Source of the DNA: Caulobacter sp. Root343
GTDB taxonomy: Bacteria; Pseudomonadota; Alphaproteobacteria; Caulobacterales; Caulobacteraceae
Reading direction: 5' to 3'
NCBI RefSeq assembly: GCF_001425745.1
Contig: NZ_LMDF01000005.1
Span: forward strand, 556,472-620,471
DNA: 64,000 bases
The position numbers and the translations under genes were made by a program. A model generated the notes under the pieces. The model searched no databases, was not told where the DNA came from, and worked only from the letters and a program-made list of their open reading frames with translations. Positions 24,321 to 39,887 of the stretch are shown one piece after another; within the stretch, counting starts at the first letter, position 1; every line of letters starts with the position of its first letter.

Positions 24321-27158
24321 CTACTTCTTCCGCGTCACCACCACCGGCTCGCCGGCGTAGTCCACGGTGGCGTCGGCCGCCGCGTCGAAGTCGGTCGGCT
24401 TGGCGCCCGCCCCGATGAAGCGAATCTTGAACACGCGCTTGTCGACCATGCCGTCGAACTTGCCCGAACGAGCGCCGATCGTGACCCGGCCGGCGGCGTT
24501 GTCGAAAGCGATCGGGATGCGGCTGTAGGCGCCGCGCTTGTAGGCCATCGACAGGCCGTCATCCTCGTACAGCTCGAACTTGCCGTCCTTGCCCGTGTAG
24601 ATCACCAGGGTGATCGGCAGGTCGGGCTTTTCGCCGACATATTGCTGGACGTCCGTAGTCGGCACGATCGCGCCGGCCTTCACGAACAGCGGCATCCGCG
24701 ACAGCGGCGCGTCGGCCTTGATGGTTTGGCCGCCGGCGTGGGCCTTGCCGGTCTCGAAGTCGTACCAGGTGGCGCCGGCGGGCAGATAGACCTCGCGCGA
24801 GCGGGCCTTGAAGCTGGTCACCGGGGCGACCAGGAAGGCCGAGCCGTACAGGTACTCGTCGTTGACGTCCCGCGCCTTCAGGTCGTTCGGGAAGTCCATC
24901 ACCAGGCCGCGCATGATGCTGCCGTCGTGGTGATAGGTCTCGCCCGCCAGGGTCAAGGTGTAGGGCATCAGCCGGTAGCGAAGCTCGTCGTACCAGGCCA
25001 GGCTGTCATAGACCTCGGTTCCCTTGTCCGCGAGGTTCCAGATCTCGCGGAAGGGCTCCTCGCCATGGCTGCGGAACAGCGGGCTGAAGGCGCCGAACTG
25101 GAACCAGCGCAGGTTCAGCTCCTGCCACTCGGGCCAGTGGGCCGCCTCACGGTTCAGGTAGCGGTCCTCGACCGAGAAGCCGCCGATGTCGGTGGTCCAG
25201 TTGGGCACGCCGGCCATCGACAGGTTCACCCCGGCCGAGATCTGGTCCTTCAGGTCATCCCAGCGGGCCACGACGTCGCCGCTCCACAGGGCCACGCCGT
25301 TACGCTGGATGCCGCCGAAGCCCGAGCGCGACAGGATGAAGCTGCGCTTGTTCGGGTTCAGTTCATGCTCGCCCTCGAACACGCCCGAGGTATGGATCAG
25401 CGGATACGAGTTGAAGAATTCCGCGCCCGGGCCCATCGCGGTCGGGCCCATGCGCAGAGTGCGTTCGGGGATGTCGAGATTGGAGTGCATGTCCGGCTCG
25501 TCGCTGTCCATCCACCAGGCGTCGACGCCATAGACCTTCAGGCTCTCCTTGACCTGGCGCCAGTAGATGTCGCGCGCCTCCTTCGAATAGGGGTCGTAGA
25601 ACGAGTTCAGATAACCGGGGCCGACCCAGTCCAGCGCGCCCTGCTCGATGTTGCGCTTGTACATGTGGCCCTTGGCGTCGAGCTCCTTGAAGTGCTCGGT
25701 CGTCGGATAGAACTTGGCCCAGATCGAGATCATGAAGTGGCCGTTCATCCCGTGGATGTCGTCCAGCATCTTCTTCGGATCGGGGAAGCGGGTCTCGTCG
25801 AACTTGTGGCTGCCCCAGCTGTCGTCTTTCCAGTAGCGCCAGTCCATCACCACGTTGTCGATCGGCAGCTTGCGGTCGCGATACTCCTTCAGCACCCCGA
25901 CGATCTGGTCCTGGGTCTCGTAGCGCTGGCGGCTCTGCCAGAAACCGTAGGCCCAGCGCGGCATCGCCTCGGCCTTGCCGGTCAGTTCGCGATAGCCGCT
26001 GACCACCTGGTCCAGGTTGTCGCCAGAGACGAAATAGTAGTCGATGGCGTGGGCCACGTCCGAGGTCAGGGTCAGCGACTTCTGCTGCGCGGCCGGGATC
26101 GGATCGTTGTGCAGCAGGGCGACGTAGCCGTCGTTGGGCTCCCACTCGACGCGGACCTTGTGACGGGTCCCGGCCTTCATCGGGGCGGTGAAGTTGTGGA
26201 ACCACGGGTTCCAGTTCTGCCGCCAGCGGTCGATCTTCAACTGGCCGTCGACATAGAGCTTGGCGTAGCTGGAGGAGTAAAGCTTGAACTTCTGGACGCC
26301 GCTGGTCTTGGGCTCGACGAAGCCTTCCCAGACCACGGTCGCGCCCTTGACCGGCTTCTTGTCGGCGCCGGTCAGCTCGGCCGGCCAGCTCGGCAGGTCC
26401 TTCAGATAGCGGTAGTTGATGTCCGCCTCGGTGCGCGTCAGCTTCAGCTCGCCCTTGACGTAGTACTTGGCCGTGAAGCCGCCGGCCTTGCCCTTCTCGT
26501 CGAAGATCTTCAGGTCGCGCGAGGCCAGGTCGTAGGGCGTCGGGTCGCCGAAGCGGGTGATGCCGTTGTTGTCCCACAGCAGGCCGTAGTTGCGGGTCGA
26601 CAGCACGAACGGGACGGCGATGTCGCGATTGTACTGGGCCAGCTCGACGTCCTGACCGTTGTAGTTCATCTGGCCGTTCTGGTGCTGGCCCAGGCCGTAG
26701 AAGGCTTCATCCGTGGACGGATTGAATCGCTGACTGACGGCGTAGAAGCCCTTTCCGTCGATGGTCAGCGGCTTGAAGGCCTGGCGGCCCTGCTCGGCCA
26801 GGACCGTCTTGCCGGCCGCGTCCTTGAACGACACCGCGCCGGTGGCCAGGGCGACTTCGGCCGTGGCCTTGCCGGCCTTCAGCACCACCTTGCCGGCCGC
26901 CTGCTCGACGGTGAAGCCGGAGGTCTTCGGCGGGGCGACGACCTGCAGGCTGGGCGGGACGTCGATCGCGTCGGTGGGCGAGGCCGTGACGTGGATCGTC
27001 CGGTCGTTCATCACCTGCAGGCGGATCTTCTTGGCCGGGCCCGAGGCTGGGGTGACGACCACGCCGTCGGCGGTCTTCTCGAAAGCGCCGTCGAGGGCGA
27101 GCGCCGAGGTGGAAGCCAGCAGAGCAAGGCTGAAAGCGGAGAGGGCGAGAATACGCAT
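24321..27158 (-). CDS. GH31 alpha-xylosidase with PA14 insert (xyloglucan type)
   Basis: This 945-aa exported enzyme has a signal peptide (MRILALSAFSLALLASTSAL). Its domains run in order: N-terminal beta-sandwich (25-225), a PA14-like insert at about 235-360 (WEGFVEPKTSGVQKFKLYSS), the GH31 barrel (385-730) and C-terminal sandwich domains with a DUF5110-type end. The nucleophile is Asp551 in AWWMDSDEP and the acid/base is probably Asp628 in LWSGDVVARW. A PA14 insert at this place is known from the Cellvibrio japonicus xyloglucan alpha-xylosidase, which has similar length and residue numbering. It would remove alpha-1,6-xylose from the non-reducing end of xyloglucan oligosaccharides after degalactosylation by the GH35 enzyme, whose gene lies 13 bp upstream. 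Confidence 0.92.
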   Translation of the reverse strand: MRILALSAFSLALLASTSALALDGAFEKTADGVVVTPASGPAKKIRLQVMNDRTIHVTASPTDAIDVPPSLQVVAPPKTSGFTVEQAAGKVVLKAGKATAEVALATGAVSFKDAAGKTVLAEQGRQAFKPLTIDGKGFYAVSQRFNPSTDEAFYGLGQHQNGQMNYNGQDVELAQYNRDIAVPFVLSTRNYGLLWDNNGITRFGDPTPYDLASRDLKIFDEKGKAGGFTAKYYVKGELKLTRTEADINYRYLKDLPSWPAELTGADKKPVKGATVVWEGFVEPKTSGVQKFKLYSSSYAKLYVDGQLKIDRWRQNWNPWFHNFTAPMKAGTRHKVRVEWEPNDGYVALLHNDPIPAAQQKSLTLTSDVAHAIDYYFVSGDNLDQVVSGYRELTGKAEAMPRWAYGFWQSRQRYETQDQIVGVLKEYRDRKLPIDNVVMDWRYWKDDSWGSHKFDETRFPDPKKMLDDIHGMNGHFMISIWAKFYPTTEHFKELDAKGHMYKRNIEQGALDWVGPGYLNSFYDPYSKEARDIYWRQVKESLKVYGVDAWWMDSDEPDMHSNLDIPERTLRMGPTAMGPGAEFFNSYPLIHTSGVFEGEHELNPNKRSFILSRSGFGGIQRNGVALWSGDVVARWDDLKDQISAGVNLSMAGVPNWTTDIGGFSVEDRYLNREAAHWPEWQELNLRWFQFGAFSPLFRSHGEEPFREIWNLADKGTEVYDSLAWYDELRYRLMPYTLTLAGETYHHDGSIMRGLVMDFPNDLKARDVNDEYLYGSAFLVAPVTSFKARSREVYLPAGATWYDFETGKAHAGGQTIKADAPLSRMPLFVKAGAIVPTTDVQQYVGEKPDLPITLVIYTGKDGKFELYEDDGLSMAYKRGAYSRIPIAFDNAAGRVTIGARSGKFDGMVDKRVFKIRFIGAGAKPTDFDAAADATVDYAGEPVVVTRKK

Positions 27159-27171
27159 TGGCGAGCTTCCG

Positions 27172-28812
27172 TCAGTAGGTGGCGAGCTTGACCCGCAGGA
27201 TCTGCGAGCCGCCGGTGAAGTTGAGGCCGTAGTCTGTCTGGTCGCCGTTCCACAGGCGGTCGAAAACCCACTGGCCGTTCTCGAAGTGACCTTCCTCGAC
27301 GCGGGCCACCATCATCGGCTTGGCGTCTTGAGCGGCGCGGCCGAATTCGATGCGGACGTTGCGGCCGGTGACCAGGAATTCGTCGGGCGACAGCTGGGCG
27401 ACGACGCCGCCGCCGTCGGGACCTTGCGGGCCGGGCGGGCGGTCCTTCAGCCAGGCCCAGTCCGACGCCCCGAACTGCCACTTGCCGTAACGCAGGGTCA
27501 CGGTCCAGGCGCCCAGGGTCGCGGACTGGGGCGCGCGGTCGTCGGGCTCGGCACCGCCGAACACCTTGCCCTCGAACGACAGCTTGGCCCACTCGCGAGC
27601 CATGCCGCCCAGCAGGCGGTAGTTGGCGGCAAAGGCCTCGACCGTGGCGTCGTCCAGCTTGGCCGCGCCGAGCGGGAAGTTGGCGTAGCCGGTATAGTCC
27701 ATGCCGAACGGCGAGAAGCCGATGGCCTGCTTGCCCAGCGCCTCGAACACGTAGCGGGCATAGACCTGATCATTGCCGGTCTCGGCCACCAGCAGGGCGT
27801 TGTCGGGCCGCTTGTAGTGCTTGAGCGCCGCCTCGTACTTGACCGACTCCTTCATGTAGATGTCGGGCGCGATCAGGTCGACCGAGGGGGCGGCGGCCTT
27901 CCAGACGTCCAGCACGTTGTCGGTCGGGCCGCCGGCCGAATAGCTCTTGGGCTCTCCCGGCTTGATCGGGTCGCGCAGGGCGGCGTTGACGTACATCGGC
28001 AGCGGATAGACCGCCTTGCCGGCCGCCGCCACCTGGTCGACGAAGCGGCCGATGTGCCAGGCGTGGAAGTATTCGTCGGCGTCCTTGCCGAAGGCTTGGC
28101 TCCAGGTCCCGGGCTTGGCGCCCACGGCCTTGACCAGCGTCGCGGGCGCGGGACCGTCGAACAGTTTCTGGGCGGCGGGGCCGAAGTCGCGGACCGTGCC
28201 GTAGGTGCCGGTCTCATTCTCGACCTGGACCATGATCACCGTCCGATCGGCCGAGTCCTTGGCCTTCAGGTGGGTCATCATGGCCACGAAGGCCTTGCGG
28301 TCGGCGTCCAAGGTCGATTGAGCCAACGGCGACATCGAGTACGAGCGCTCGCCGGTCTCCTTCTTCAGCCGCGGGAAGCGCTTGTCGTCCAGCTTGACCC
28401 ATTCGGGGGCATAGGACGGCGAAGAGTTCTTCCAGGTGCCGAACCACAGCAGGACCAGGCGGACGTTGTGCTCGCGGGCCTGGGTCAGCAGCAGGTCGAG
28501 ATACGAGAAGTCGAACTTGCCCTCGACCGGCTCGATCTGCTCCCAGGCGATCGGGACCATCACGGTGTTGGCGGCCATCTTCTCGACGGCCGGCCAGACC
28601 TTGGGCATCTGCGAGGGCCAGGCGCTGGAATTGTTGACCTGGGCGCCCAGCAGCAGCCAGGGCGCGCCATCGACCATCAGGGCGTGGCGGCCATCCTTGG
28701 CGACCAGGCGCGGCGTCTCGCGGTCGGCCGCGACGGCGCCCGTCGCGCTGATGGCGAGAATCGAGGCCGCTCCGAGGGCCGCCCCAAAAGCCGTAGTGAA
28801 GCGTGAAATCAC
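27172..28812 (-). CDS. GH35 beta-galactosidase with DUF5597-type C-terminus (xyloglucan type)
   Basis: The start is GTG at 28810-28812 with a GGGAGGAGGCGG ribosome-binding region. The protein has 546 aa including a signal peptide ending ATGAVAA. The TIM barrel carries the acid/base Glu200 (VQVENETGTYG) and the nucleophile Glu344 (LLVAETGND). The C-terminus (LRYGKWQFG onwards) matches the DUF5597-type extension of Cellvibrio japonicus Bgl35A, which strips beta-galactose from xyloglucan side chains. The catalytic positions lie within five residues of that enzyme as I recall it. It heads an operon with GH31. A perfect LacI-type operator is 35 bp upstream. Confidence 0.92.
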   Translation of the reverse strand: MISRFTTAFGAALGAASILAISATGAVAADRETPRLVAKDGRHALMVDGAPWLLLGAQVNNSSAWPSQMPKVWPAVEKMAANTVMVPIAWEQIEPVEGKFDFSYLDLLLTQAREHNVRLVLLWFGTWKNSSPSYAPEWVKLDDKRFPRLKKETGERSYSMSPLAQSTLDADRKAFVAMMTHLKAKDSADRTVIMVQVENETGTYGTVRDFGPAAQKLFDGPAPATLVKAVGAKPGTWSQAFGKDADEYFHAWHIGRFVDQVAAAGKAVYPLPMYVNAALRDPIKPGEPKSYSAGGPTDNVLDVWKAAAPSVDLIAPDIYMKESVKYEAALKHYKRPDNALLVAETGNDQVYARYVFEALGKQAIGFSPFGMDYTGYANFPLGAAKLDDATVEAFAANYRLLGGMAREWAKLSFEGKVFGGAEPDDRAPQSATLGAWTVTLRYGKWQFGASDWAWLKDRPPGPQGPDGGGVVAQLSPDEFLVTGRNVRIEFGRAAQDAKPMMVARVEEGHFENGQWVFDRLWNGDQTDYGLNFTGGSQILRVKLATY

Positions 28813-28846: not shown

Positions 28847-28860
28847 TGGTAGCGCTACCA
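28847..28860. promoter_or_regulatory. LacI-type operator TGGTAGCGCTACCA in front of GH35
   Basis: The 14-bp perfect palindrome is centred 41 bp upstream of the GH35 GTG. Its AGCGCT core matches LacI/GalR-family operators, and a similar palindrome is associated with xylose control in Caulobacter. No LacI gene is in the window, so the repressor is encoded elsewhere. Confidence 0.75.
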
Positions 28861-28929
28861 GTTTTATTTGTCGGACCATTGTCCCGCTGAGCGGCGATGA
28901 CAAGCCCAGATCCACGGTTCTCATCGGTC

Positions 28930-28967
28930 AAAAAAATCCGCGCATCGCCGCAGGTGACGATGCGCGG
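28930..28967 (-). terminator. Strong intrinsic terminator between halogenase and GH35
   Basis: CCGCGCATCG (28938-28947) and CGATGCGCGG (28958-28967) form a perfect 10-bp stem with a 10-nt loop. On the minus strand a run of seven U follows (28936-28930) after a 1-nt gap. It lies downstream of a promoter candidate at 29083-29110 and upstream of the GH35 operator. Confidence 0.88.
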
Positions 28968-29076
28968 GAAAAGACGCCGCGCGGCCTCGGGGAGAGGTTG
29001 CCGCGCGAAGCACGGAAAGGGCGATGAGGCCCGCTCCATGCCGCCGATCCGGTAATGGCCCCGGCCCGGCTGAGCT
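28930..29076 (-). ncRNA. Candidate regulated small RNA or attenuator leader
   Basis: On the minus strand a promoter (TTGCTG, 16-bp spacer, TATACT) would start RNA near 29076. The RNA would run through a stem-loop CGCGCGGC/GCCGCGCG (28978-29007) and end at the U7 terminator (28930-28967), about 147 nt. No open frame with a ribosome-binding site is visible inside. The same promoter architecture with the same operator type precedes the TonB receptor at 30821. The alternative is that this is the long leader of GH35-GH31 and the terminator is an attenuator. The 336-bp gap 28813-29148 is fully taken up by this, the operators and the GH35 promoter region. Confidence 0.5.
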
Positions 29077-29082
29077 TGTCTG

Positions 29083-29131
29083 AGTATAATCATATTATTC
29101 AGACCAGCAAGCGGATTTGATAGCGTTGTCA
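29083..29131 (-). promoter_or_regulatory. Promoter with AT-rich palindrome and LacI-type operator
   Basis: Minus strand: -35 TTGCTG (29110-29105), 16-bp spacer, -10 TATACT (29088-29083). ATAATCATATTAT (29086-29098), a near-palindrome, overlaps the -10 region. TGATAGCGTTGTCA (29118-29131), an imperfect LacI-type palindrome, lies just upstream of the -35. Spacing and order repeat those at 33847-33896. Confidence 0.6.
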
Positions 29132-29148: not shown

Positions 29149-30666
29149 CTAGGAGGCTAGCGGATCGGCCTTGCAGGTGGCCGCGATGAAGGCGTCGTGG
29201 CTGGGCAAACCCGAGGCGATGCCGGCGATTTTCTGACCCACGCCGCGCAGCCGGCTGGCCACCACCGCGTAGTCCGGGACGTCGGCCAGATGGTCGTAGT
29301 CGCGCGGCGCGATCCCCTGCCCCAGAAACACCGCCAGCCAGCTGGGCTCGGCGAACAGTTGGTCGTCGAAGCGCGCGATCTTGGCCCGGTTGCGGAACAG
29401 CTCGATCTTGTGGGCCAGGCTGTCGGGGATGGCCATCGTCCGGCAGTGGTTCCACAGCGGCGAGTCTGTCCGCTCGGTGGCGTGGTAGTGCAGGATGATG
29501 AAGTCCCGGATCTGCTCGTATTCGATCTGGGTGAGGCGGTTATATTCCAGCTCGGCCGCCGGGTCGTAGCCGCCAAAGGGCAACAGCGACAGCAGGCGCA
29601 TCGCGCCGGTCTGCACCAGGTGGATGCTGGTCGATTCCAGCGGCTCCATGAACCCGCCGGCCAGGCCCAGGGCGACGACGTTCTTGCTCCAGCTCTTCTT
29701 GCGGCGGCCGGCGGTGAAGCGCAGCGGGCGCGGGTCGGCCTGCGGCTTGCCGTCAAGATTGGCCAGCAGGGTGGCGGCGGCCTCGTCGTCGCTGATGAAG
29801 CTGCTGCAATAGACGTGGCCGTTGCCGATCCGGTGCTGCAGCGGGATGCGCCATTGCCAGCCGCCCGCCCGCGCCGTCGCCCGAGTGTAGGGCGTCATCG
29901 GCGAGACGCTCTCGCATGGCACGGCCAGGGCCCGGTCGCAGGGCAGCCAGTGCGACCAATCCTCGAACCCGGCCTCCAGGGCCTGTTCGATCAGCAGGCC
30001 GCGGAACCCCGAACAGTCGACGAAGAAGTCGCCCTCGACCCGGCGGCCGTCGGCCAGGGTCAGGCCCGAGACGAAGCCGTCCTCGGGGCGCAGCTCGACC
30101 TTGGCGATCTTGCCCTCGGTGCGCTTGACGCCCCGCGCCTCGGCATAGGCCCGCAGGTACTTGGCGTAGAGCCCAGCGTCGAAATGGTAGGCGTAGCCCA
30201 GGCCCGGCACGCCCGGCGGCAGCTCCTTGGGCGGCACCGCGAACTTGCCCATCCGCGCGGTGACGGTGGCCATGGCGTAGTCGTCCAGCGAGCCGCCCTC
30301 GCCCTGGGCCCTCAGCCGCAGCCAGTAATGGTGGAAGCCGACGCCCTCGAACGGTTCGCCATAGGGGCCGAACGGATGGAAGTACTGGTCGCCCAGCTTG
30401 CCCCAGTCGCGGAACTGGATGCCCAGCTTGAACGTGGCCTGGGTCTTCTTGATGAAGTCGAACTCGTCGATGCCCAGCAAGCCGTTGAGAAACTGGATCG
30501 GCGGGATGGTGGCCTCGCCGACCCCGACCGTGCCGATCTCGTCGGACTCGATCAGCTCGACCTCGCCGACCTTGCCCTTGAGGGCCTGGATCAGGGTCGC
30601 CGCCGCGATCCAGCCGGCCGTGCCGCCGCCGACCACCACGAACTTGCGATAGGGTTGGTCGGCCAT
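29149..30666 (-). CDS. Flavin-dependent tryptophan-halogenase-like protein
   Basis: All signatures of the family are visible in this 505-aa protein. GGGTAGW (residues 13-19) binds FAD. Lys80 lies in ATFKLGI, WQWRIP blocks the monooxygenase route, and the Glu in FMEPLESTSIHL is the second catalytic residue. Such enzymes use FADH2, O2 and halide to halogenate aromatics. Genes of this family are frequent beside TonB receptors in Caulobacterales, Sphingomonadales and Xanthomonas, where the natural substrate is mostly unknown. The gene follows the TBDR with 154 bp between them, most of it a palindromic repeat. No flavin reductase is nearby. Whether it halogenates or modifies the receptor's ligand is open. 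Confidence 0.9.
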   Translation of the reverse strand: MADQPYRKFVVVGGGTAGWIAAATLIQALKGKVGEVELIESDEIGTVGVGEATIPPIQFLNGLLGIDEFDFIKKTQATFKLGIQFRDWGKLGDQYFHPFGPYGEPFEGVGFHHYWLRLRAQGEGGSLDDYAMATVTARMGKFAVPPKELPPGVPGLGYAYHFDAGLYAKYLRAYAEARGVKRTEGKIAKVELRPEDGFVSGLTLADGRRVEGDFFVDCSGFRGLLIEQALEAGFEDWSHWLPCDRALAVPCESVSPMTPYTRATARAGGWQWRIPLQHRIGNGHVYCSSFISDDEAAATLLANLDGKPQADPRPLRFTAGRRKKSWSKNVVALGLAGGFMEPLESTSIHLVQTGAMRLLSLLPFGGYDPAAELEYNRLTQIEYEQIRDFIILHYHATERTDSPLWNHCRTMAIPDSLAHKIELFRNRAKIARFDDQLFAEPSWLAVFLGQGIAPRDYDHLADVPDYAVVASRLRGVGQKIAGIASGLPSHDAFIAATCKADPLAS

Positions 30667-30820: not shown

Positions 30821-33751
30821 CTAGAACGTCCCGCGCAGCACCACCGAGTAGCGGCGGTCGGCCACCACCCAGTTGTGCTTGGTCAGGCCCTCTTCCGGAC
30901 GGCCCGGATAGCTGACCAGGATCTTGGTCCGGGTATTGGTCAGGTTCACGGCCTGGAAGCCGATCTTCAGCTTGTCGTTGACGGTGTAGAACACCGAACC
31001 GTCCAGCTGACCGTAATCGCCGTACCAGGCGGGGATGTTGATGTTCGCCGCCGTCGTGGTCAGCAGGTAGCGCTCACGCCAGTTGTAGGCCAGGCGAGCC
31101 GACACCTTGCCCTGGTCGTAGAGGGCGGCGACGTTGTAGCTCTTCTTCGACAGGCCCTCGAGCGGCAGCTCGTCGCCGTTGTTGCGGATATTGCCGACCT
31201 GCGTGCTGTCGTACGGGTTGGACGCCGCGTTGCGCGTGCCCTCGCTGTCGACATAGGTGAAGTTGGCCTGGGCGCCGAAGCCCTTCAGCAGGCCCGGCAG
31301 GAAGTCGTAGTACTGCTGATAGGCGAGCTCGAAGCCTTTGATCTTGCCGTGGCCGGCGTTGTACGGCTGCACCACCTGGACCGTGCGCGTGACCCCGTTG
31401 TTGACGAAGGTCTGGTTCTGCGCGCCGTTGGTGATGAAGTTGTAGATGTCCTTGTAGAACACCGTCGCCGTCAGGCTGCCGGTCGGGGCGAAGTACCACT
31501 CATAGGCCAGGTCGTACTGGGTCGAGCGGGTCGGCTTCAGGTCCGGGTTACCCGCATTGGCCGTGTACTGATAGACGCAGTTGGCCTGGAGACCGCCGGG
31601 GATCGAGTTGGCGCAGACCCCGCCCGTCAGATAGCCGTTGGTGGCGCTGATCGCGTAGTTCGGCTGCAGCTGCGAGAAGTCCGGACGCACCACCGCCTTG
31701 GCCGCCGCGAAGCGGATGAACATGTCCGGCGTGACCTTCAGCCTGGCGTTGAAGCTGGGCAGGATGTTCACGTAGTCGCGACCGCCGACATAGGCGCTGC
31801 GGGCGCCGTTGGCGAAGGCCAGGTCGGCCGCCGGGACGGTGTTCTGGGTATTGGCGTTGAAGACCTGGATGCCTTGGCTGTCGGTCTCGGTCTTGACGAT
31901 CCGCACGCCGATGTTGCCGTCGAGGTCGCGATCCTCGCCGCCCAGCGACAGCTCGTGGCCGAACCGCAGCAGGGCGTAACCCGCGAGGGTCTTTTCCTTC
32001 TGGTGGTTGGTGCTGCCCCGGCCGCCCGTCTGGCCCTGGCTTTCGAAGTCGCCCGCGAACGGACGCCAGCCGCCGCCGTTGGCCGCCGCGATCGGGCCGA
32101 TGATGCTGGCGAAGGAAGCGTAGTCGTGCACGAACTCGGCGTTCGGCATGACGAAGGTCGCCGGCAGGTGGGCCGCGCCGCGGAAGTAGTTGTCGAACGG
32201 ATAGAGACCGTAGTGACCCTGATAGGTCGGCAGCTTGTCGATCGACGGCGCCGACCAGCTGGGGGCGACCGTATCCCAACGATAGGTCGTCTCGCGGGTC
32301 GTGGCCTGGCGATAGGTGCTGCGCAGACCGAACTTCAGCGACTTCAGCCAGCCGCCGTCATCGAACTCGTAGGCGCCGTCGACGCGCGTGGCCAGCTCGC
32401 TGCCCTCGTTGCGGTCGTGGTGATCCATCACGGCCTGCAGGTAGTAGCTGGCCGGGTTGGACGTATACGCCTTGTCGTTGTTCATCGTGATGACCGGCAG
32501 GCTGCCCGTGAGGTCCAGGCTGGCCGGCGAGGCGTCGCCGCTGAGGGCGTTGAACGCGGTCGTGTCGACGGTCTTGGTCTTGGCGTAGATGTACTGGACG
32601 TCGCCGCTGAACGACCACTTGTCGTTCGGATTGTACTTCAGGTTCAGCGAGTAGTCCGACGTCACCGAGCTGCGCTCGGCGTAGCGGGTGTCGATGGTCG
32701 ACGAGCCCAGGCTCGTGCCGCCCGGCGAACCGGCCAGCGTGCCCTTCACGAAGTGGCCGTCCGAGTCGTAGGTGAAGGTCGTGCCGGCGGCGGGGCCATT
32801 GCCCGAGCCGGGATTGAAGCCGACGGCGTGTTCCGACGAGGCCTGCAGGGCCGACGAGCGCAGGAACTGCAGCGTCGCTTCCCACTGGTCGTTGGGACGC
32901 CATTGCACGGCCGCGTCGATACCCTTGCGCTCGCGGTCGAAGTCCAGGCTGCGGTAGCCGAAGCCGCCGGGGACATAGACCGTCTTGCCCGGAACCAGGT
33001 TGGTGCGCGCGTTGAAGGGGTCAACCGAGATCGTGTCGGTGCGGCTCTTCAGCTTGGAGTCGGACAGGTCGACCAGGAAGCCGATCTCGCCGATGCCGGT
33101 CTGGAAGCGGTCGCTGTAGAGGATCGAGCCGCCGGGCTTCCACTTTTTCGACATGTCGCCGTAGCTGGCGTCGATCGAATAGGCGATCTGGCGCTTGGCG
33201 CTGTCGAACGGCAGGCGCGTGCGCAGGTTGACGGTGCCGCCGATGCCGCCTTCGACGATGTCGGCCGAGGGGTTCTTGTAGACGTCGACGCCGGCCATCA
33301 GCTCGGGCGGGATGTCCTCGAAGCTCAGCGTGCGGCCGCTCTTGGCCGAGAAGCTGTCGCGGCCGTTCAGTTCGCCGCGCACCCACGACAGGCCGCGCAC
33401 CTGGACGCCCGAGCCTTCGACGGACAGGCGGTCGGCGTCGCGACCGTCTGAGGTCCGACCAATGGTGACGCCGGCGACCCGCTGCAGGGCCTCGGTCACC
33501 GAACGGTCCGGCAGGGCGCCGATGTCGGTCGAGGTGATCGAATCGACCAGCTGTTCGGCGTTCTGCTTGATCTTCTGGGCCGACTGGATCGAAGCGCGCT
33601 GGCCGGTGACCACCACCTCTTCGACGACGTCGGCGTCCTTAGGCGCGGTCTGCGCCTGAGCCTGCGCCATGGCTGGCGCGGCGGCGCAGAGCACGAGCGC
33701 CGAAGCGCCGGCGAGCATGAATTTGCGATGAGACGAATTGAGGCGCTGCAT
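30821..33751 (-). CDS. TonB-dependent receptor of the xyloglucan/galactose locus
   Basis: This 976-aa protein has a signal peptide ending in APAMAQ, a VVVTGQRASIQSAQ segment and a plug with ALPDRSVTEALQRVAGVTIG and FEDIPPELMAGVDVYKNPSA. DIVEGGIGGTVNLRTRLPF follows, and the barrel ends SVVLRGTF. This is the Caulobacter/Xanthomonas oligosaccharide-type receptor class. The ATG at 33749-33751 has an AAGGGAA ribosome-binding site. It is divergent from the galactonate operon, with operators on both sides of the 330-bp gap. By position it should import galactosylated xyloglucan oligosaccharides for the periplasmic GH35/GH31 enzymes. Ligand identity is inferred. Confidence 0.93.
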   Translation of the reverse strand: MQRLNSSHRKFMLAGASALVLCAAAPAMAQAQAQTAPKDADVVEEVVVTGQRASIQSAQKIKQNAEQLVDSITSTDIGALPDRSVTEALQRVAGVTIGRTSDGRDADRLSVEGSGVQVRGLSWVRGELNGRDSFSAKSGRTLSFEDIPPELMAGVDVYKNPSADIVEGGIGGTVNLRTRLPFDSAKRQIAYSIDASYGDMSKKWKPGGSILYSDRFQTGIGEIGFLVDLSDSKLKSRTDTISVDPFNARTNLVPGKTVYVPGGFGYRSLDFDRERKGIDAAVQWRPNDQWEATLQFLRSSALQASSEHAVGFNPGSGNGPAAGTTFTYDSDGHFVKGTLAGSPGGTSLGSSTIDTRYAERSSVTSDYSLNLKYNPNDKWSFSGDVQYIYAKTKTVDTTAFNALSGDASPASLDLTGSLPVITMNNDKAYTSNPASYYLQAVMDHHDRNEGSELATRVDGAYEFDDGGWLKSLKFGLRSTYRQATTRETTYRWDTVAPSWSAPSIDKLPTYQGHYGLYPFDNYFRGAAHLPATFVMPNAEFVHDYASFASIIGPIAAANGGGWRPFAGDFESQGQTGGRGSTNHQKEKTLAGYALLRFGHELSLGGEDRDLDGNIGVRIVKTETDSQGIQVFNANTQNTVPAADLAFANGARSAYVGGRDYVNILPSFNARLKVTPDMFIRFAAAKAVVRPDFSQLQPNYAISATNGYLTGGVCANSIPGGLQANCVYQYTANAGNPDLKPTRSTQYDLAYEWYFAPTGSLTATVFYKDIYNFITNGAQNQTFVNNGVTRTVQVVQPYNAGHGKIKGFELAYQQYYDFLPGLLKGFGAQANFTYVDSEGTRNAASNPYDSTQVGNIRNNGDELPLEGLSKKSYNVAALYDQGKVSARLAYNWRERYLLTTTAANINIPAWYGDYGQLDGSVFYTVNDKLKIGFQAVNLTNTRTKILVSYPGRPEEGLTKHNWVVADRRYSVVLRGTF

Positions 33752-33846: not shown

Positions 33847-33896
33847 GCTATAATCGTATAATTGCGACCTTCAAGGCGAAATTGATAGCGCTATCA
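33847..33896 (-). promoter_or_regulatory. TonB receptor promoter with TGATAGCGCTATCA operator
   Basis: Minus strand: -35 TTGAAG (33874-33869), 16-bp spacer, -10 TATAGC (33852-33847), so transcription would start near 33840 with a leader of about 90 nt. ATAATCGTATAAT (33850-33862) overlaps the -10 region. The perfect palindrome TGATAGCGCTATCA (33883-33896) is 8 bp upstream of the -35. Confidence 0.65.
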
Positions 33897-33975
33897 TTTC
33901 ACCGGCGAAACGCGATTTTTCCGCCACACCCCTAAGCTACGGTTGCAAATTGGCGGTTTCGCGCGTGGGAAAACC

Positions 33976-34030
33976 GGAAGCGCTTCCATCTTTCCCCCGA
34001 CATTGCGTCGATCATTATTATATTATAAAT
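33976..34030 (+). promoter_or_regulatory. Control region of the galactonate operon
   Basis: GGAAGCGCTTCC (33976-33987) is a perfect palindrome with a LacI/GalR-type core. Downstream lie TTGCGT (34003-34008) and TATAAA (34024-34029), spaced 15 bp, inside the AT-rich run ATTATTATATTATAAAT (34014-34030). That run resembles the boxes at 29086 and 33850. The dehydratase ATG is 52 bp further on. Confidence 0.5.
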
Positions 34031-34081
34031 GGCGACCAACAGGATGCGGATCGGTCCCTGCGGCCGGCGTTAGGGACGGAT

Positions 34082-35817
<1,736 letters not shown>

Positions 35818-35818
<1 letters not shown>

Positions 35819-36732
35819 TGGACCAGGACGTCGTGATCGTCGGCGACTGGGGCACCTCGCGCCTGCGACTCTGGCTGCGCCAGGGCAAGAGCGTGATCCA
35901 TCGCCGCGACGGCCCGGGGGTCTCGGCCCTGACCGACACGCCGGAGAAGACCTTCCTCGACCTGGTCGGCGACTGGCGCGAGGCCGGCCCGACCGGCGCC
36001 CTACTGTGCGGCATGGTCGGCTCGCGCATCGGCTGGGTGGAAGCGCCCTACGCCACCTGCCCGGCTGCCCCCGCCGATGTCGCCGACAAGACCATCCGCA
36101 TTGAAGCCGGCGGCCTGTCGGTGACGATCGTTCCCGGCCTCTCGTGCACGAACCCGCTGGGCGGTCCCGACGTGATGCGCGGCGAGGAGACCCAGGTGTT
36201 CGGGGCCCTGGCCCTGGACGAGGCCTTGCGGACCGGCCGCCACCTGCTCGTTTTGCCCGGCACCCACAACAAGTGGACCGTGGTCGAGGACGGCAAGATC
36301 ATGGGCTTCGTCACCGCCCCGGTCGGCGAGACCTTCGCCCTCTTGAAGCAGCACTCGACGCTGGCCGCCGGCGGCGGGTCCCAGGCCGACGGCTCGGCCG
36401 AGGGCTTCGCCAGGGGCCTGTCCCGCATCGCCGAGCACGGCGCGGCGCGCCTGACCCACCTGATGTTCGAGACCCGCTCGCGCCAGCTGCTGGACGGCCT
36501 CTCGCCCGCCGATGCCATGGGCTACCTGTCGGGCCTGCTGGTCGGGGCCGACGTGGCCGCCGCCCGCGACTGGTTCGGCCCCATGGACGCCGTGACCGTG
36601 ATCGGCGCCGGCGCCCTCAGCGACCTCTATGTCCAGGCCCTGGCCAGGATCGACGTCGGCGCGACCGTCGTCGATGGCGACGCGGCCGTCCTTGCCGGCC
36701 TATCGGCGATTTCCAGATCTCAACAGAAGTGA
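35818..36732 (+). CDS. dgoK: 2-keto-3-deoxygalactonokinase
   Basis: The 304-aa ASKHA-fold kinase has an N-terminal phosphate loop VGDWGTSRLRLWL, a MVGSRIGW motif, MRGEETQVFGAL, LPGTHNKWTVVEDG and TAPVGETFALL. All are typical of DgoK. It phosphorylates 2-keto-3-deoxygalactonate at C6 with ATP. Start and stop overlap or nearly abut the neighbours (TGATG with the dehydratase, 5 bp to dgoA), so the three form a tightly coupled operon of the De Ley-Doudoroff pathway. Together they convert galactonate to pyruvate and glyceraldehyde 3-phosphate in the cytoplasm. Confidence 0.95.
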
Positions 36733-36737
36733 CGCTT

Positions 36738-37349
36738 ATGACCGACGCCGCCCCGCCCCCCATCGTGGCCATCCTGCGCGGCGTGAAGCCGGACGAGATC
36801 GTCGACATCGCCGCCGCCCTGGTCGCCGCCGGGATCAAGGGCATCGAGGTGCCGCTGAACTCGCCCGACCCGCTGGAGAGCATCAAGCGCCTCTGCGACG
36901 CGTTCGGCGATCAGGCCCTGTGCGGGGCCGGCACGGTGCTGACGCCCCAGGCCGTCGACGACGTCGCCGGGGTCGGCGGCAAGCTGATCGTCACGCCCAA
37001 CACCGATCCCGAGGTCATCGCCCGCGCCGTGGCGCTGGGCCTGACCGCCATGCCCGGCTTCGCCACGCCGTCGGAGGCCTTCGCCGCCGTCAAGGCCGGG
37101 GCCAAGGCGCTGAAGCTCTATCCGGCCGGCTCGTTCGGCCCGGGTCACATCAAGGCCGTCAAGGACGTGCTGCCCAAGCATGTGCTGGTCTACGCCGTCG
37201 GCGGCGTCGGCGCGGCCAATCTCGAACCATGGCGCGCCGCCGGCGCCGCCGGCATCGGCGTCGGCGGCGAGCTCTATCGGCCGGGCTACACCGCCCAGGA
37301 GGTCGGCCAGCGCGCCGCCGCCCTGGTCGCGGCCTGGAACGCCGGCTAG
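36738..37349 (+). CDS. dgoA: 2-keto-3-deoxy-6-phosphogalactonate aldolase
   Basis: The 203-aa class I aldolase has catalytic Glu37 in GIEVPLNSPDP and Schiff-base Lys126 in ALKLYPAGSFGP. EVPLNSP distinguishes KDPGal aldolases from KDPG aldolases. GAGTVLTP and PNTDPEVIARAV also fit. It splits KDPGal into pyruvate and D-glyceraldehyde 3-phosphate. It follows dgoK by 5 bp and precedes the sodium symporter by 49 bp, within the galactonate operon. Confidence 0.95.
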   Translation: MTDAAPPPIVAILRGVKPDEIVDIAAALVAAGIKGIEVPLNSPDPLESIKRLCDAFGDQALCGAGTVLTPQAVDDVAGVGGKLIVTPNTDPEVIARAVALGLTAMPGFATPSEAFAAVKAGAKALKLYPAGSFGPGHIKAVKDVLPKHVLVYAVGGVGAANLEPWRAAGAAGIGVGGELYRPGYTAQEVGQRAAALVAAWNAG

Positions 37350-37398
37350 CCGGACCAGACCGGCCGCCAACGATAAAAGCCCATAAGGGGGAGGAACA

Positions 37399-38970
37399 AT
37401 GAACCTAGCAGCCATCGATATCGCGGTGCTCGCGGTCTACGCGGTCGCCATCTTCGGCCTCGCCCAGTGGGTGTCGCGCGACAAGGGCGGTCACCAGAAG
37501 GACTCGACCGACTACTTCCTGGCCGGCAAGGCCCTGCCCTGGTGGGCGATCGGCGCCTCGCTGATCGCCGCCAACATCTCGGCCGAGCAGATCATCGGCA
37601 TGAGCGGCTCGGGCTACGCCATCGGCCTGGCCATCGCCTCGTACGAATGGATGGCGGCCCTGACCCTGCTGATCGTCGGCAAGTTCTTCCTGCCGGTGTT
37701 CCTGAAGAACGGCGTCTACACCATGCCGCAATTCCTGGAGCAGCGGTACGGGCCCAGCGTGCGGACCCTGATGGCCGTGTTCTGGCTGGGCCTCTACGTC
37801 TTCGTGAACCTGACCTCGATCCTTTGGCTGGGCTCGATCGCCATCCACACCGTCACGGGCCTGGACCAGATGTGGGCCCTGGCCGCCATCGGCGCCTTCG
37901 CCCTGGCCTATCAGATCTGGGGCGGGCTGAAGGCCGTGGCCCTGACCGACATCGTCCAGGTGGCCCTGCTGGTCACCGGCGGCCTGATCATCGCCTGGCT
38001 GTCGCTGGGCAAGATCGGCGGCGGCGACGTGCTGGCCGGCTTCCATCAGCTGACCACCCAGTTCCCCGACAAGTTCGACATGATCCTGAGCAAGGACAAT
38101 CCGCACTACAAGGACCTGCCCGGCATCGCGGTGCTGGTCGGCGGCCTGTGGATCATGAACATCAGCTACTGGGGCTTCAACCAGTACATCATCCAGCGCG
38201 CCCTCGGGGCCAAGGACCTGAAGGAAGCCCAGAAGGGCATCGCCATGGCGGCCTACCTGAAGCTGCTGATGCCGGTGATCGTGGTGCTGCCGGGCATCGC
38301 CGCCCTCGTGCTCGCCCCGCAAGGCATCAAGCCCGACCAGGCCTATCCGGAGATGATGAAGCTGCTGCCGCCCGGCCTGCTGGGCCTGGTGTTCGCGGCC
38401 CTAGTGGCGGCGATCGTCGCCTCGCTGGCGGCCAAGATCAACTCGATCGCCACCATCTTCACCCTCGACGTATACGCCAAGGCCCGGCCGGGCCAAAGCG
38501 AGCGGCGGCTGGTCGCGGTCGGGCGCATCACCGCGATCGTCGCGGTGATCATCGGCATCCTGACCGCCAAGCCGCTGCTGGGCGGGGCCGAGCAGGCGTT
38601 CCAGTTCATCCAGGAGTTCACCGGCTTCTTCACGCCGGGCATCGTGGTGATCTTCATCCTGGGCATGTTCTGGAAGAAGGCGACCACCGCCGGCGCCCTG
38701 ACCGCCGCCATCGGCTCGGCCGTGCTGTCGGCGCTGTTCTGGTGGCTGCAGAAGGAGGCGATCTACACCATGCCGTTCATGAACCGCGTGGGCGTGGTCT
38801 TCCTGCTGTCGCTGGCCGGCGCCGTGCTGGTCTCGCTGGTCGCGCCGCAGAAGACGCCGGTCAGCGTCGTGACGCTGGAAGGGGTCAGCTACAAGACCTC
38901 GACCGGCTTCAACATCGCCGGCGTCGGGGTCATCCTGATCCTGATCGCGCTCTACGCCACCTGGTGGTGA
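37399..38970 (+). CDS. Na+/galactose-type symporter (SSS family, vSGLT-like)
   Basis: The 523-aa inner-membrane protein has about 14 hydrophobic helices. Several blocks match Vibrio vSGLT closely: STDYFLAGKALPWWAIGASL, ANISAEQIIGMSGSGYAIGL, YWGFNQYIIQRALGAKDL and AAIVASLAAKINSIATIF. This group imports galactose or glucose with Na+. The ATG at 37399 has GGGGGAGG 7 nt upstream. As the last gene of the operon it would bring in the galactose released in the periplasm by the GH35 enzyme. A textbook terminator follows. Confidence 0.93.
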   Translation: MNLAAIDIAVLAVYAVAIFGLAQWVSRDKGGHQKDSTDYFLAGKALPWWAIGASLIAANISAEQIIGMSGSGYAIGLAIASYEWMAALTLLIVGKFFLPVFLKNGVYTMPQFLEQRYGPSVRTLMAVFWLGLYVFVNLTSILWLGSIAIHTVTGLDQMWALAAIGAFALAYQIWGGLKAVALTDIVQVALLVTGGLIIAWLSLGKIGGGDVLAGFHQLTTQFPDKFDMILSKDNPHYKDLPGIAVLVGGLWIMNISYWGFNQYIIQRALGAKDLKEAQKGIAMAAYLKLLMPVIVVLPGIAALVLAPQGIKPDQAYPEMMKLLPPGLLGLVFAALVAAIVASLAAKINSIATIFTLDVYAKARPGQSERRLVAVGRITAIVAVIIGILTAKPLLGGAEQAFQFIQEFTGFFTPGIVVIFILGMFWKKATTAGALTAAIGSAVLSALFWWLQKEAIYTMPFMNRVGVVFLLSLAGAVLVSLVAPQKTPVSVVTLEGVSYKTSTGFNIAGVGVILILIALYATWW

Positions 38971-38976
38971 GCAAGG

Positions 38977-39006
38977 ATGGGCGGCTTCCGAGTCGCCCAT
39001 TTTTTC
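38977..39006 (+). terminator. Terminator of the galactonate operon
   Basis: ATGGGCG (38977-38983) pairs with CGCCCAT (38994-39000), loop 10 nt, followed by six T. It starts 6 nt after the symporter stop. Confidence 0.9.
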
Positions 39007-39011
39007 CGTTT

Positions 39012-39031
39012 TGGTCAGACCACATGTCTGA
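39012..39031 (+). promoter_or_regulatory. FadR-type GntR operator upstream of the FCD regulator
   Basis: TGGTCAGACCA (39012-39022) fits the FadR-subfamily consensus TNGTNNNACNA exactly. It overlaps the perfect inverted repeat TCAGAC-N5-GTCTGA (39015-39031). It is about 130 bp upstream of the GntR ATG, directly after the operon terminator, so autoregulation is plausible. Confidence 0.6.
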
Positions 39032-39158
39032 ACACTCTTGCCGAAACCGCGCCGCGCGGCTGTATTCAACCGCAACCGTCGCGTTCGCGAACGGCGCGAA
39101 CCAAGGTACACAGCGGCGAAACCCTTTGTTTCGTTGTCGCAGGAAAGAAGAGTAGCCG

Positions 39159-39887
39159 ATGCGCACCCAGCCCGGCCTGAGTTTGACCTACGGTCTGGTC
39201 GAGCAACTTGGTCAGGCCATCGTGACCGGCGAGTACGTCGAGGTGGGCTTCCCGACCGAGGGCGAGCTGTCCAAACAGTTCGGGGCCAGCCGCACGGTGA
39301 CCCGCGAAGCGGTCAAGATGCTGACCGCCAAGGGCCTGCTCAGCGCCCGCCCGCGCCACGGCACCGTGGTCGAGCCCGAGGCCGAGTGGAACATGCTCGA
39401 CCCCGACGTGCTGCGCTGGCTGCTGGAGCGCAAGTTCTCGCTGCGCCTGCTGGCCGACTTCACCGAGATGCGGCTGGGCATCGAGCCGGCCGCCGCCGCC
39501 CTGGCCGCCCGCAACGCCGACGAGGCGGGGCTGGAGGAGATCCGCAAGGGCCTGCGCCGCATGAAGTCCGCCGCCGAGGGCGAGGACGACCCGTTGTCGG
39601 CCGACATCGCCTTCCACATCGCCATCCTCAGCGCGACCAAGAACCCGTTCTATCGCGAGCTGCACGAGCTGGTGAACACCGCCCTGCGCATCTCGATCCG
39701 CTTCACCAACCGCATCAAGGGCCGCACCGCCTCGATCCCCTCGCACGAGGACGTGGCCGAGGCGATCATCGCCCGCGACGCCGACAAGGCCTCGTCGGCC
39801 ATGCGCGAGATCATCGTCGACGTGCTGGAGCTGATCCGCGCCGCCTCGCCGTCGACCGAGAGCGAAGCGGCCCGCCGCGAGGCTTAG
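39159..39887 (+). CDS. GntR-family regulator, FadR/FCD subfamily (DgoR-like)
   Basis: The 242-aa protein has an N-terminal winged HTH (LVEQLGQAIVTGEYVEVGF, then ELSKQFGASRTVTREAVKML and RPRHGTVV). A helical FCD effector domain spans about residues 90-225 (DFTEMRLGIEPAAAALAA, DIAFHIAILSATKNPFY). The Asp/His residues in DIAFHIA and later SHEDVAEAI suggest metal-assisted sugar-acid binding, as in FCD proteins. Position after the galactonate operon suggests that it responds to galactonate or a keto-deoxy intermediate. It has its own promoter region after the terminator. Its probable operator is at 39012-39031. Confidence 0.92.
   Translation: MRTQPGLSLTYGLVEQLGQAIVTGEYVEVGFPTEGELSKQFGASRTVTREAVKMLTAKGLLSARPRHGTVVEPEAEWNMLDPDVLRWLLERKFSLRLLADFTEMRLGIEPAAAALAARNADEAGLEEIRKGLRRMKSAAEGEDDPLSADIAFHIAILSATKNPFYRELHELVNTALRISIRFTNRIKGRTASIPSHEDVAEAIIARDADKASSAMREIIVDVLELIRAASPSTESEAARREA

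What the first reader, a model, noticed from the sequence alone, without database searches (positions are those of the whole stretch)
28930..29131. Carbohydrate-controlled small RNA or attenuator in the xyloglucan locus
A minus-strand promoter (TTGCTG-N16-TATACT) under a LacI-type site lies only about 150 nt before a perfect 10-bp, U7 intrinsic terminator. A second 8-bp stem-loop lies between and no reading frame is visible. The GH35 gene has a different operator after the terminator. The unit therefore looks like a free-standing structured RNA of about 147 nt, co-regulated with the TonB receptor, or an attenuator ahead of GH35-GH31. Either would be a new RNA layer in xyloglucan/galactose control.
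Basis: partly seen in the sequence, partly recalled or inferred. Interest (0 to 1): 0.72.

Follow-up and report, generated by a model that had tools for sequence, protein, structure and literature searches.

The report
Sugar-controlled small RNA beside receptor operon
Between a TonB sugar-receptor operon and a beta-galactosidase gene lies a short unit with a receptor-type promoter, a hairpin with a C-rich loop and a strong terminator, conserved in 21 of 75 Caulobacter genomes searched; it likely makes a small RNA of about 147 bases that would block translation of other mRNAs when the receptor is switched on.

Summary
In detail: a minus-strand unit (operator 29131-29118, promoter 29110-29083, C-loop hairpin 29007-28978, terminator 28967-28930) lies between a TonB-receptor/halogenase-like operon and GH35-GH31. 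It is conserved: 21 of 75 genus genomes carry it, with exact operator in 19, promoter core and C-rich loop in 21. The operator pattern has only three exact places in the 5.36-Mb genome; one is the neighbouring receptor's promoter, which has the same layout. GH35 has its own operator after the terminator, so the attenuator reading is not supported; a free-standing small RNA is. Unexpectedly, 24 of 29 weaker family hits lie directly behind stop codons of other TonB-receptor genes (about five receptor lineages), 0 of 24 with the promoter core. In two species such a 3'-end copy and the promoter-driven copy stand in tandem. Best reading: a receptor 3'-end RNA module with its own receptor-type promoter, likely acting in trans through an anti-Shine-Dalgarno loop. 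Transcription, targets and regulator are untested. It is below the cut-offs of Rfam alpha-r7 and sX13 and lacks the alpha-R8 core.

The parts
29118..29131 (-). LacI-type operator TGACAACGCTATCA upstream of the small-RNA promoter
   Evidence: exact pattern in 19 of 21 homologous loci
29083..29110 (-). promoter TTGCTG-N16-TATACT (predicted start near 29076)
   Evidence: core present in 21 of 21 loci; same layout as the receptor promoter; not listed by the consensus scan
29012..29076 (-). 5' part of the predicted RNA; hairpins, sequence variable between species
28978..29007 (-). hairpin with C-rich loop (AACCTCTCCCCGAG, 28999-28986)
   Evidence: loop motif in 21 of 21 loci
28930..28967 (-). intrinsic terminator with T7; loop TCACCTGCGG
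28847..28860 (-). operator TGGTAGCGCTACCA of GH35, after the terminator (not part of the RNA)
33883..33896 (-). operator TGATAGCGCTATCA of the TonB-receptor promoter
30821..33751 (-). TonB-dependent receptor (TIGR01782)
29149..30666 (-). tryptophan-halogenase-like gene (PF04820)
27172..28812 (-). GH35 beta-galactosidase family gene
   Evidence: NF051902, 516.8 bits, cut-off 500
24321..27158 (-). GH31 gene

Best explanation
The stretch 28930-29131 (minus strand) carries a promoter with the operator and layout of the neighbouring TonB-receptor promoter, a hairpin with a C-rich loop and an intrinsic terminator, conserved together in most of 21 Caulobacter loci, and it is most likely a free-standing small-RNA gene that would be switched on together with the receptor and would act in trans by pairing its C-rich loop with ribosome-binding sites of other mRNAs. 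Shown by sequence: the parts, their conservation, the shared rare operator, the separate GH35 operator, and the relatives behind stop codons of other TonB-receptor genes. Inferred: that RNA is made; that a LacI-family regulator controls it; that it stems from a receptor 3'-end module which has a receptor-type promoter of its own; that it lowers translation of competing transporter or sugar-use mRNAs. No other terminator was noted between the halogenase-like gene and the unit (they are 18 nt apart from operator to stop codon), so the same terminator would also end the receptor-halogenase mRNA and the RNA could come from two transcripts.
For: Position and parts; stable fold; 21 of 75 genus genomes at 63 bits or more, 21 of 21 of these loci between the halogenase-like gene or receptor and GH35 or a GH35 remnant; operator 19 of 21, promoter core 21 of 21, C-rich loop 21 of 21; operator pattern at 3 exact places in the genome, one before the receptor; matching promoter layouts; GH35 with its own operator-like site in 21 of 23 loci; in L007 and L009 the unit is flanked by terminators on both sides, so the RNA there would come from its own promoter; 24 of 29 weaker family hits behind TonB-receptor genes, 0 of 24 with the promoter core in 250 nt. 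Analogy: C-rich loops of sX13 and the anti-Shine-Dalgarno core of SisA repress mRNAs, receptors among them.
Against: No transcript evidence. The -35 is weak by consensus. Orthologues alone show a change on both sides in only 1 of 18 pairs. Duplex energies of the loop with nine local start regions are no better than shuffles. The operator is missing in L007 and L009. 54 of 75 genus genomes lack the RNA at this score, and four relatives with the GH35 gene lack it by model search (L039-L042). No LacI gene lies in the window. The 5' part alone is clearly structured (z below -2) in only 9 of 18 loci.
Confidence: 0.55

Rival explanations
1. It is only the 3' end of the receptor-halogenase operon: hairpin and terminator stabilise and end that mRNA, with no trans role, and the relatives behind other receptor genes do the same.
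For: 24 of 29 weaker family hits lie directly behind receptor stop codons without the promoter core; the terminator follows the halogenase-like gene by about 180 nt.
Against: The own operator and promoter are conserved in place with the RNA; in L007 and L009 a separate terminator ends the receptor mRNA before the unit; the loop sequence, not only the stem, is conserved.
Confidence: 0.25
2. Attenuator or leader ahead of GH35-GH31: transcription from the operator promoter runs through or stops at the terminator depending on sugar state.
For: Same strand, directly ahead of GH35; the terminator is strong.
Against: GH35 has its own operator-like site after the terminator in 21 of 23 loci; the RNA persists beside a GH35 remnant (L016); no conserved leader peptide. 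An antiterminator fold was not searched for.
Confidence: 0.08
3. A sponge or decoy: the C-rich loop mainly captures another small RNA with a G/A-rich loop, such as CrfA, rather than mRNAs.
For: CrfA of C. crescentus pairs through a G/A-rich loop with the C-rich core of SisA-D (PMC12559287, part 1 of Results).
Against: No CrfA homologue was looked for here; in that paper the C-rich RNAs repress mRNAs themselves.
Confidence: 0.07

Closest known systems
sX13 of Xanthomonas (RF02232; PMC3771888, abstract and passages seen)
   Same: Hairpins with C-rich apical loops; pairing with G-rich motifs near start codons is the proposed mode; a TonB-receptor mRNA is among the repressed ones.
   Different: 19.1 of 50 bits; other lineage; three C-rich loops there; operator-controlled promoter and receptor locus here.
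SisA-D (alpha-R8 family) of Caulobacter crescentus (PMC12559287, abstract, parts of Results and Discussion, passages seen)
   Same: Anti-Shine-Dalgarno-type motif; represses TonB-receptor mRNAs; sibling copies in one genome.
   Different: Core UUUCCUCCCU is absent here; SisA lies beside an N-formylglutamate amidohydrolase gene; in SisA-D the motif is single-stranded behind a weak hairpin, here it is in a hairpin loop.
ChvR and RusT of Caulobacter crescentus (PMC6237742 passages; PMC11005374 one section and passages seen)
   Same: Structured small RNAs that repress TonB-receptor mRNAs.
   Different: Other loci (upstream of recF/gyrB; between lolA and xth) and other controls (ChvIG; NtrYX and iron).
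alpha-r7 (RF02342)
   Same: Similar order of hairpins with C-rich loops.
   Different: 27.1 of 60 bits; no match over the cut-off in 61 genus genomes.
Small RNAs with an own promoter in mRNA 3' regions (reported for C. crescentus in PMC4117421, passages seen)
   Same: Own promoter near the end of an operon, terminator shared with the operon.
   Different: Here relatives recur behind several TonB-receptor lineages and the promoter is of the receptor's own type.

Membership tests
alpha-r7 (RF02342) | score over Rfam's gathering cut-off (60 bits) | tested here: not met
   27.1 bits
sX13 (RF02232) | score over Rfam's gathering cut-off (50 bits) | tested here: not met
   19.1 bits
sX13 (RF02232) | C-rich apical loops | tested here: met
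   loop CCUCUCCCC; resemblance only
alpha-R8 / SisA-D | core 5'-UUUCCUCCCU-3' | tested here: not met
   absent from the sequence of 28926-29081; core as given in PMC12559287
Small RNA with own promoter in an mRNA 3' region | promoter of its own | tested here: inconclusive
   conserved promoter core in 21 of 21 loci; no transcript data
Small RNA with own promoter in an mRNA 3' region | terminator at the end of the upstream operon | tested here: met
Trans-acting, Hfq-dependent small RNA | transcript, Hfq binding, mRNA regulation | not testable with these tools
   needs bench work
Transcription attenuator | downstream gene depends on the leader promoter | tested here: inconclusive
   GH35 has its own operator-like site in 21 of 23 loci, which speaks against it
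Transcription attenuator | conserved leader peptide | tested here: not met
Transcription attenuator | alternative antiterminator fold | not tested
   no search for alternative pairings was made
LacI-family regulon with the receptor | same palindromic operator at receptor and RNA promoters | tested here: met
   the binding protein is not identified

The most novel reading that the evidence does not exclude
TonB-receptor genes of Caulobacter carry a recurring 3'-end RNA module with an anti-Shine-Dalgarno loop, so an induced receptor operon emits an RNA that silences competing receptors; in the xyloglucan-type locus this module has broken free as a sugar-operator-controlled small-RNA gene. With 113 receptor-domain hits in this one genome, that would be an RNA code for choosing receptors.
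Probability: 0.2. Interest if true: 0.8.

Novelty: new variant of a known kind. Interest (0 to 1): 0.55.

Why it matters
This genome has 113 TonB-receptor-domain hits, and how such bacteria choose which receptors to make is largely open. A small RNA tied to a receptor by the same rare operator, with relatives on the 3' ends of other receptor genes, makes one answer directly testable: receptor operons regulating each other by RNA. It would also add a sugar-operator-controlled small RNA to the envelope-stress-, iron- and starvation-controlled ones described in C. crescentus.

Tried and rejected
Attenuator ahead of GH35-GH31: set aside for the reasons under rivals. Membership in Rfam alpha-r7, sX13 or tfoR: below cut-off. 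Small protein: the 107-codon frame starts in the operator and is not conserved. Covariation in orthologues alone: almost no variation to judge by. Target prediction by duplex energy on nine local start regions: nothing clearly beyond shuffles; best GH35, 14% of shuffles as good. General claim that receptor 3' ends of this genome carry CU-rich motifs: 21 of 44 receptor tails with a terminator have one before the terminator against 4 of 44 with the complementary motif, but the non-receptor control gave 3 of 13 (Fisher p = 0.20), so it is suggestive only. For that count 107 tails came from the 113 receptor-domain matches (the others lie in the window or in L157, at a contig end, or are a second piece of one gene); 94 passed a length and reading-frame filter; 44 of these had a terminator. 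A first control with 30 MFS transporters was useless (2 with a terminator). Regulator gene near the locus: none found. Literature: searches listed no report of this RNA; only listings, abstracts, parts or passages were seen, supplements could not be read, and the library lacks most subscription papers. Whether C. crescentus NA1000 has an orthologue was not settled.

Full report
Observation. The stretch 28926-29081 folds at -84.2 kcal/mol, z = -4.4, 0 of 200 shuffles as stable. Upstream lie a TonB-dependent receptor (TIGR01782) and a tryptophan-halogenase-like gene; downstream GH35 and GH31.

Conservation. A DNA search of 199 family genomes gave 16 strong hits (E <= 2.1e-11), the window's own included. 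A covariance model of the last 82 nt (R1, built from ten loci) found 21 of 75 genus genomes at 63 bits or more. In a sample of 299 family genomes 26 had a hit at E <= 1e-6; 2 of the 26 lie outside the genus, at 38-39 bits, and were not looked at. In 21 of 21 loci the RNA lies between the halogenase-like gene or the receptor and GH35, or in L016 a GH35 remnant followed by GH31. Neighbouring proteins fall to 33-64% identity while the 3' domain of the RNA stays at about 82-86% over about 80 nt. The operator is exact in 19 of 21 loci (missing in L007 and L009), the promoter core and the C-rich loop motif are present in 21 of 21. One further orthologue, L034, keeps operator and promoter but has lost the loop. 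The picture is: operator and promoter conserved, 5' hairpin region variable, 3' domain conserved. 54 of 75 genus genomes lack a hit at this level, and four GH35-bearing relatives have none even at E <= 1 (L039-L042).

Fold. Full-length z-scores are -2.6 to -6.4 in 18 of 19 loci and -0.84 in L034; the 5' part alone is below -2 in 9 of 18.

Co-regulation. The pattern TGAYARCGCTATCA has three exact places in the 5.36-Mb genome: this unit, the receptor promoter (33883-33896), and a site before a GH39 gene that follows another TonB receptor (L311). The receptor promoter reads TGATAGCGCTATCA-N8-TTGAAG-N16-TATAGC and the RNA promoter TGACAACGCTATCA-N7-TTGCTG-N16-TATACT, so the two are of one design. 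In both, the operator lies upstream of the -35; before GH35 and GH39 it appears to lie just after the presumed -10. No LacI-family gene lies in the window; 15 are in the genome, and the only one on this contig is about 45 kb from the window's edge. The regulator is unknown, and whether it represses or activates this promoter cannot be said.

Not an attenuator. After the terminator, an operator-like site lies before GH35 in 21 of 23 loci printed (11 marked by the script, 10 by eye; none clear in L036 and L166). Similar sites stand before GH35 in L039, L040 and L042, where the model finds no RNA. The RNA persists in L016, where GH35 is a remnant. No start codon and frame is shared by the 19 loci compared.

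Relatives at receptor 3' ends. Besides the 21, one search listed 29 full-length hits with E <= 1e-4 (the degenerate orthologue of G106, which is L034's locus, set aside). All 29 were looked at. 24 begin -5 to 90 nt after the stop codon of a long reading frame with a TonB-receptor C-terminus. PF00593 confirms 23; L330 has no Pfam match and is assigned by its C-terminal similarity to confirmed ones. Five are not behind receptors (L138, L140, L141, L323, L333). By C-terminal sequence, judged by eye, the 24 belong to about five receptor lineages, so they are far from 24 independent cases. Many of their loops are C-rich (CCTTCCCA, CTCCTCCC, TTCCTCCCCGA and similar), and 0 of 24 have the promoter core or operator in the 250 nt upstream. 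In L007 and L009 such a copy, with its terminator, stands about 200 nt before the promoter-driven copy. The window's own genome has one such relative behind a receptor, just outside the cut (G000:C7:1225971, E 1.5e-4, L143/L157). In an alignment of 31 matches (30 distinct rows; orthologues and receptor 3' ends) 15 of 18 pairs show a change on both sides and 98% of cells pair, above all 500 shuffles and all slid versions. That alignment was fitted to the structure; the orthologues alone (15 distinct rows) show 1 of 18.

Mechanism. The loop CCUCUCCCC, and the terminator loop CUCCUG of many homologues, are complementary to Shine-Dalgarno-like sites. C-rich loops of sX13 are needed to repress mRNAs with G-rich motifs near the start codon (PMC3771888, abstract and passages). 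SisA of C. crescentus represses TonB-receptor and other mRNAs, likely through an anti-Shine-Dalgarno core (PMC12559287, part 1 of Results, part 1 of Discussion, passages). By analogy, this RNA would be induced with its receptor and lower translation of other transporter or sugar-use mRNAs. Targets are not shown: duplex energies with nine local start regions were not clearly better than shuffled ones.

Known families. alpha-r7 27.1 of 60 bits, sX13 19.1 of 50, tfoR 19 of 70; no alpha-r7 match over the cut-off in 61 genus genomes. The alpha-R8 core is absent from the sequence. ChvR and RusT lie at other loci by PMC6237742 (passages) and PMC11005374 (one section, passages). Small RNAs that start in the 3' end of a coding region are reported for C. 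crescentus (PMC4117421, passages).

Verdict. A genus-restricted small-RNA gene candidate, sound as a unit, with a surprising link to TonB-receptor 3' ends; transcription and function remain to be shown.

Noticed in passing
L311 (G000:C6:599712-599725): The third exact copy of the operator stands before a GH39 gene that follows another TonB-receptor gene, a likely regulon partner.
   Followed up: partly
window 29118-29131 and 33883-33896 against 28847-28860: Operators of the RNA and the receptor lie upstream of the -35, those of GH35 and GH39 near the start site; unusual for a simple LacI-type repressor and unexplained.
   Followed up: no
L007/L159 (G056:C29:225937-226011) and L009/L167 (G146:C52:46863-46937): A promoterless copy right after the receptor stop codon stands in tandem with the promoter-driven copy.
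   Followed up: partly
G000, 113 PF00593 matches: Receptor 3' tails with a terminator carry a CU-rich motif before it in 21 of 44 cases against 4 of 44 for the complement; control too small (3 of 13) to settle it.
   Followed up: partly
L143/L157 (G000:C7:1225971-1226057): A 3'-end relative of the RNA behind another TonB-receptor gene in the window's own genome.
   Followed up: partly
L016: GH35 is reduced to a C-terminal remnant while RNA, halogenase-like gene and GH31 remain.
   Followed up: no
window 33950-39887, plus strand: Divergent operon with a sugar-acid dehydratase-like gene, 2-dehydro-3-deoxy-6-phosphogalactonate aldolase, sodium/solute symporter and a GntR/FCD regulator, fitting galactose use.
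   Followed up: no
window 29149-30666: A tryptophan-halogenase-like flavoprotein gene (PF04820, 671 bits) sits in the receptor operon here and in many homologous loci; its role in a sugar locus is unexplained.
   Followed up: no
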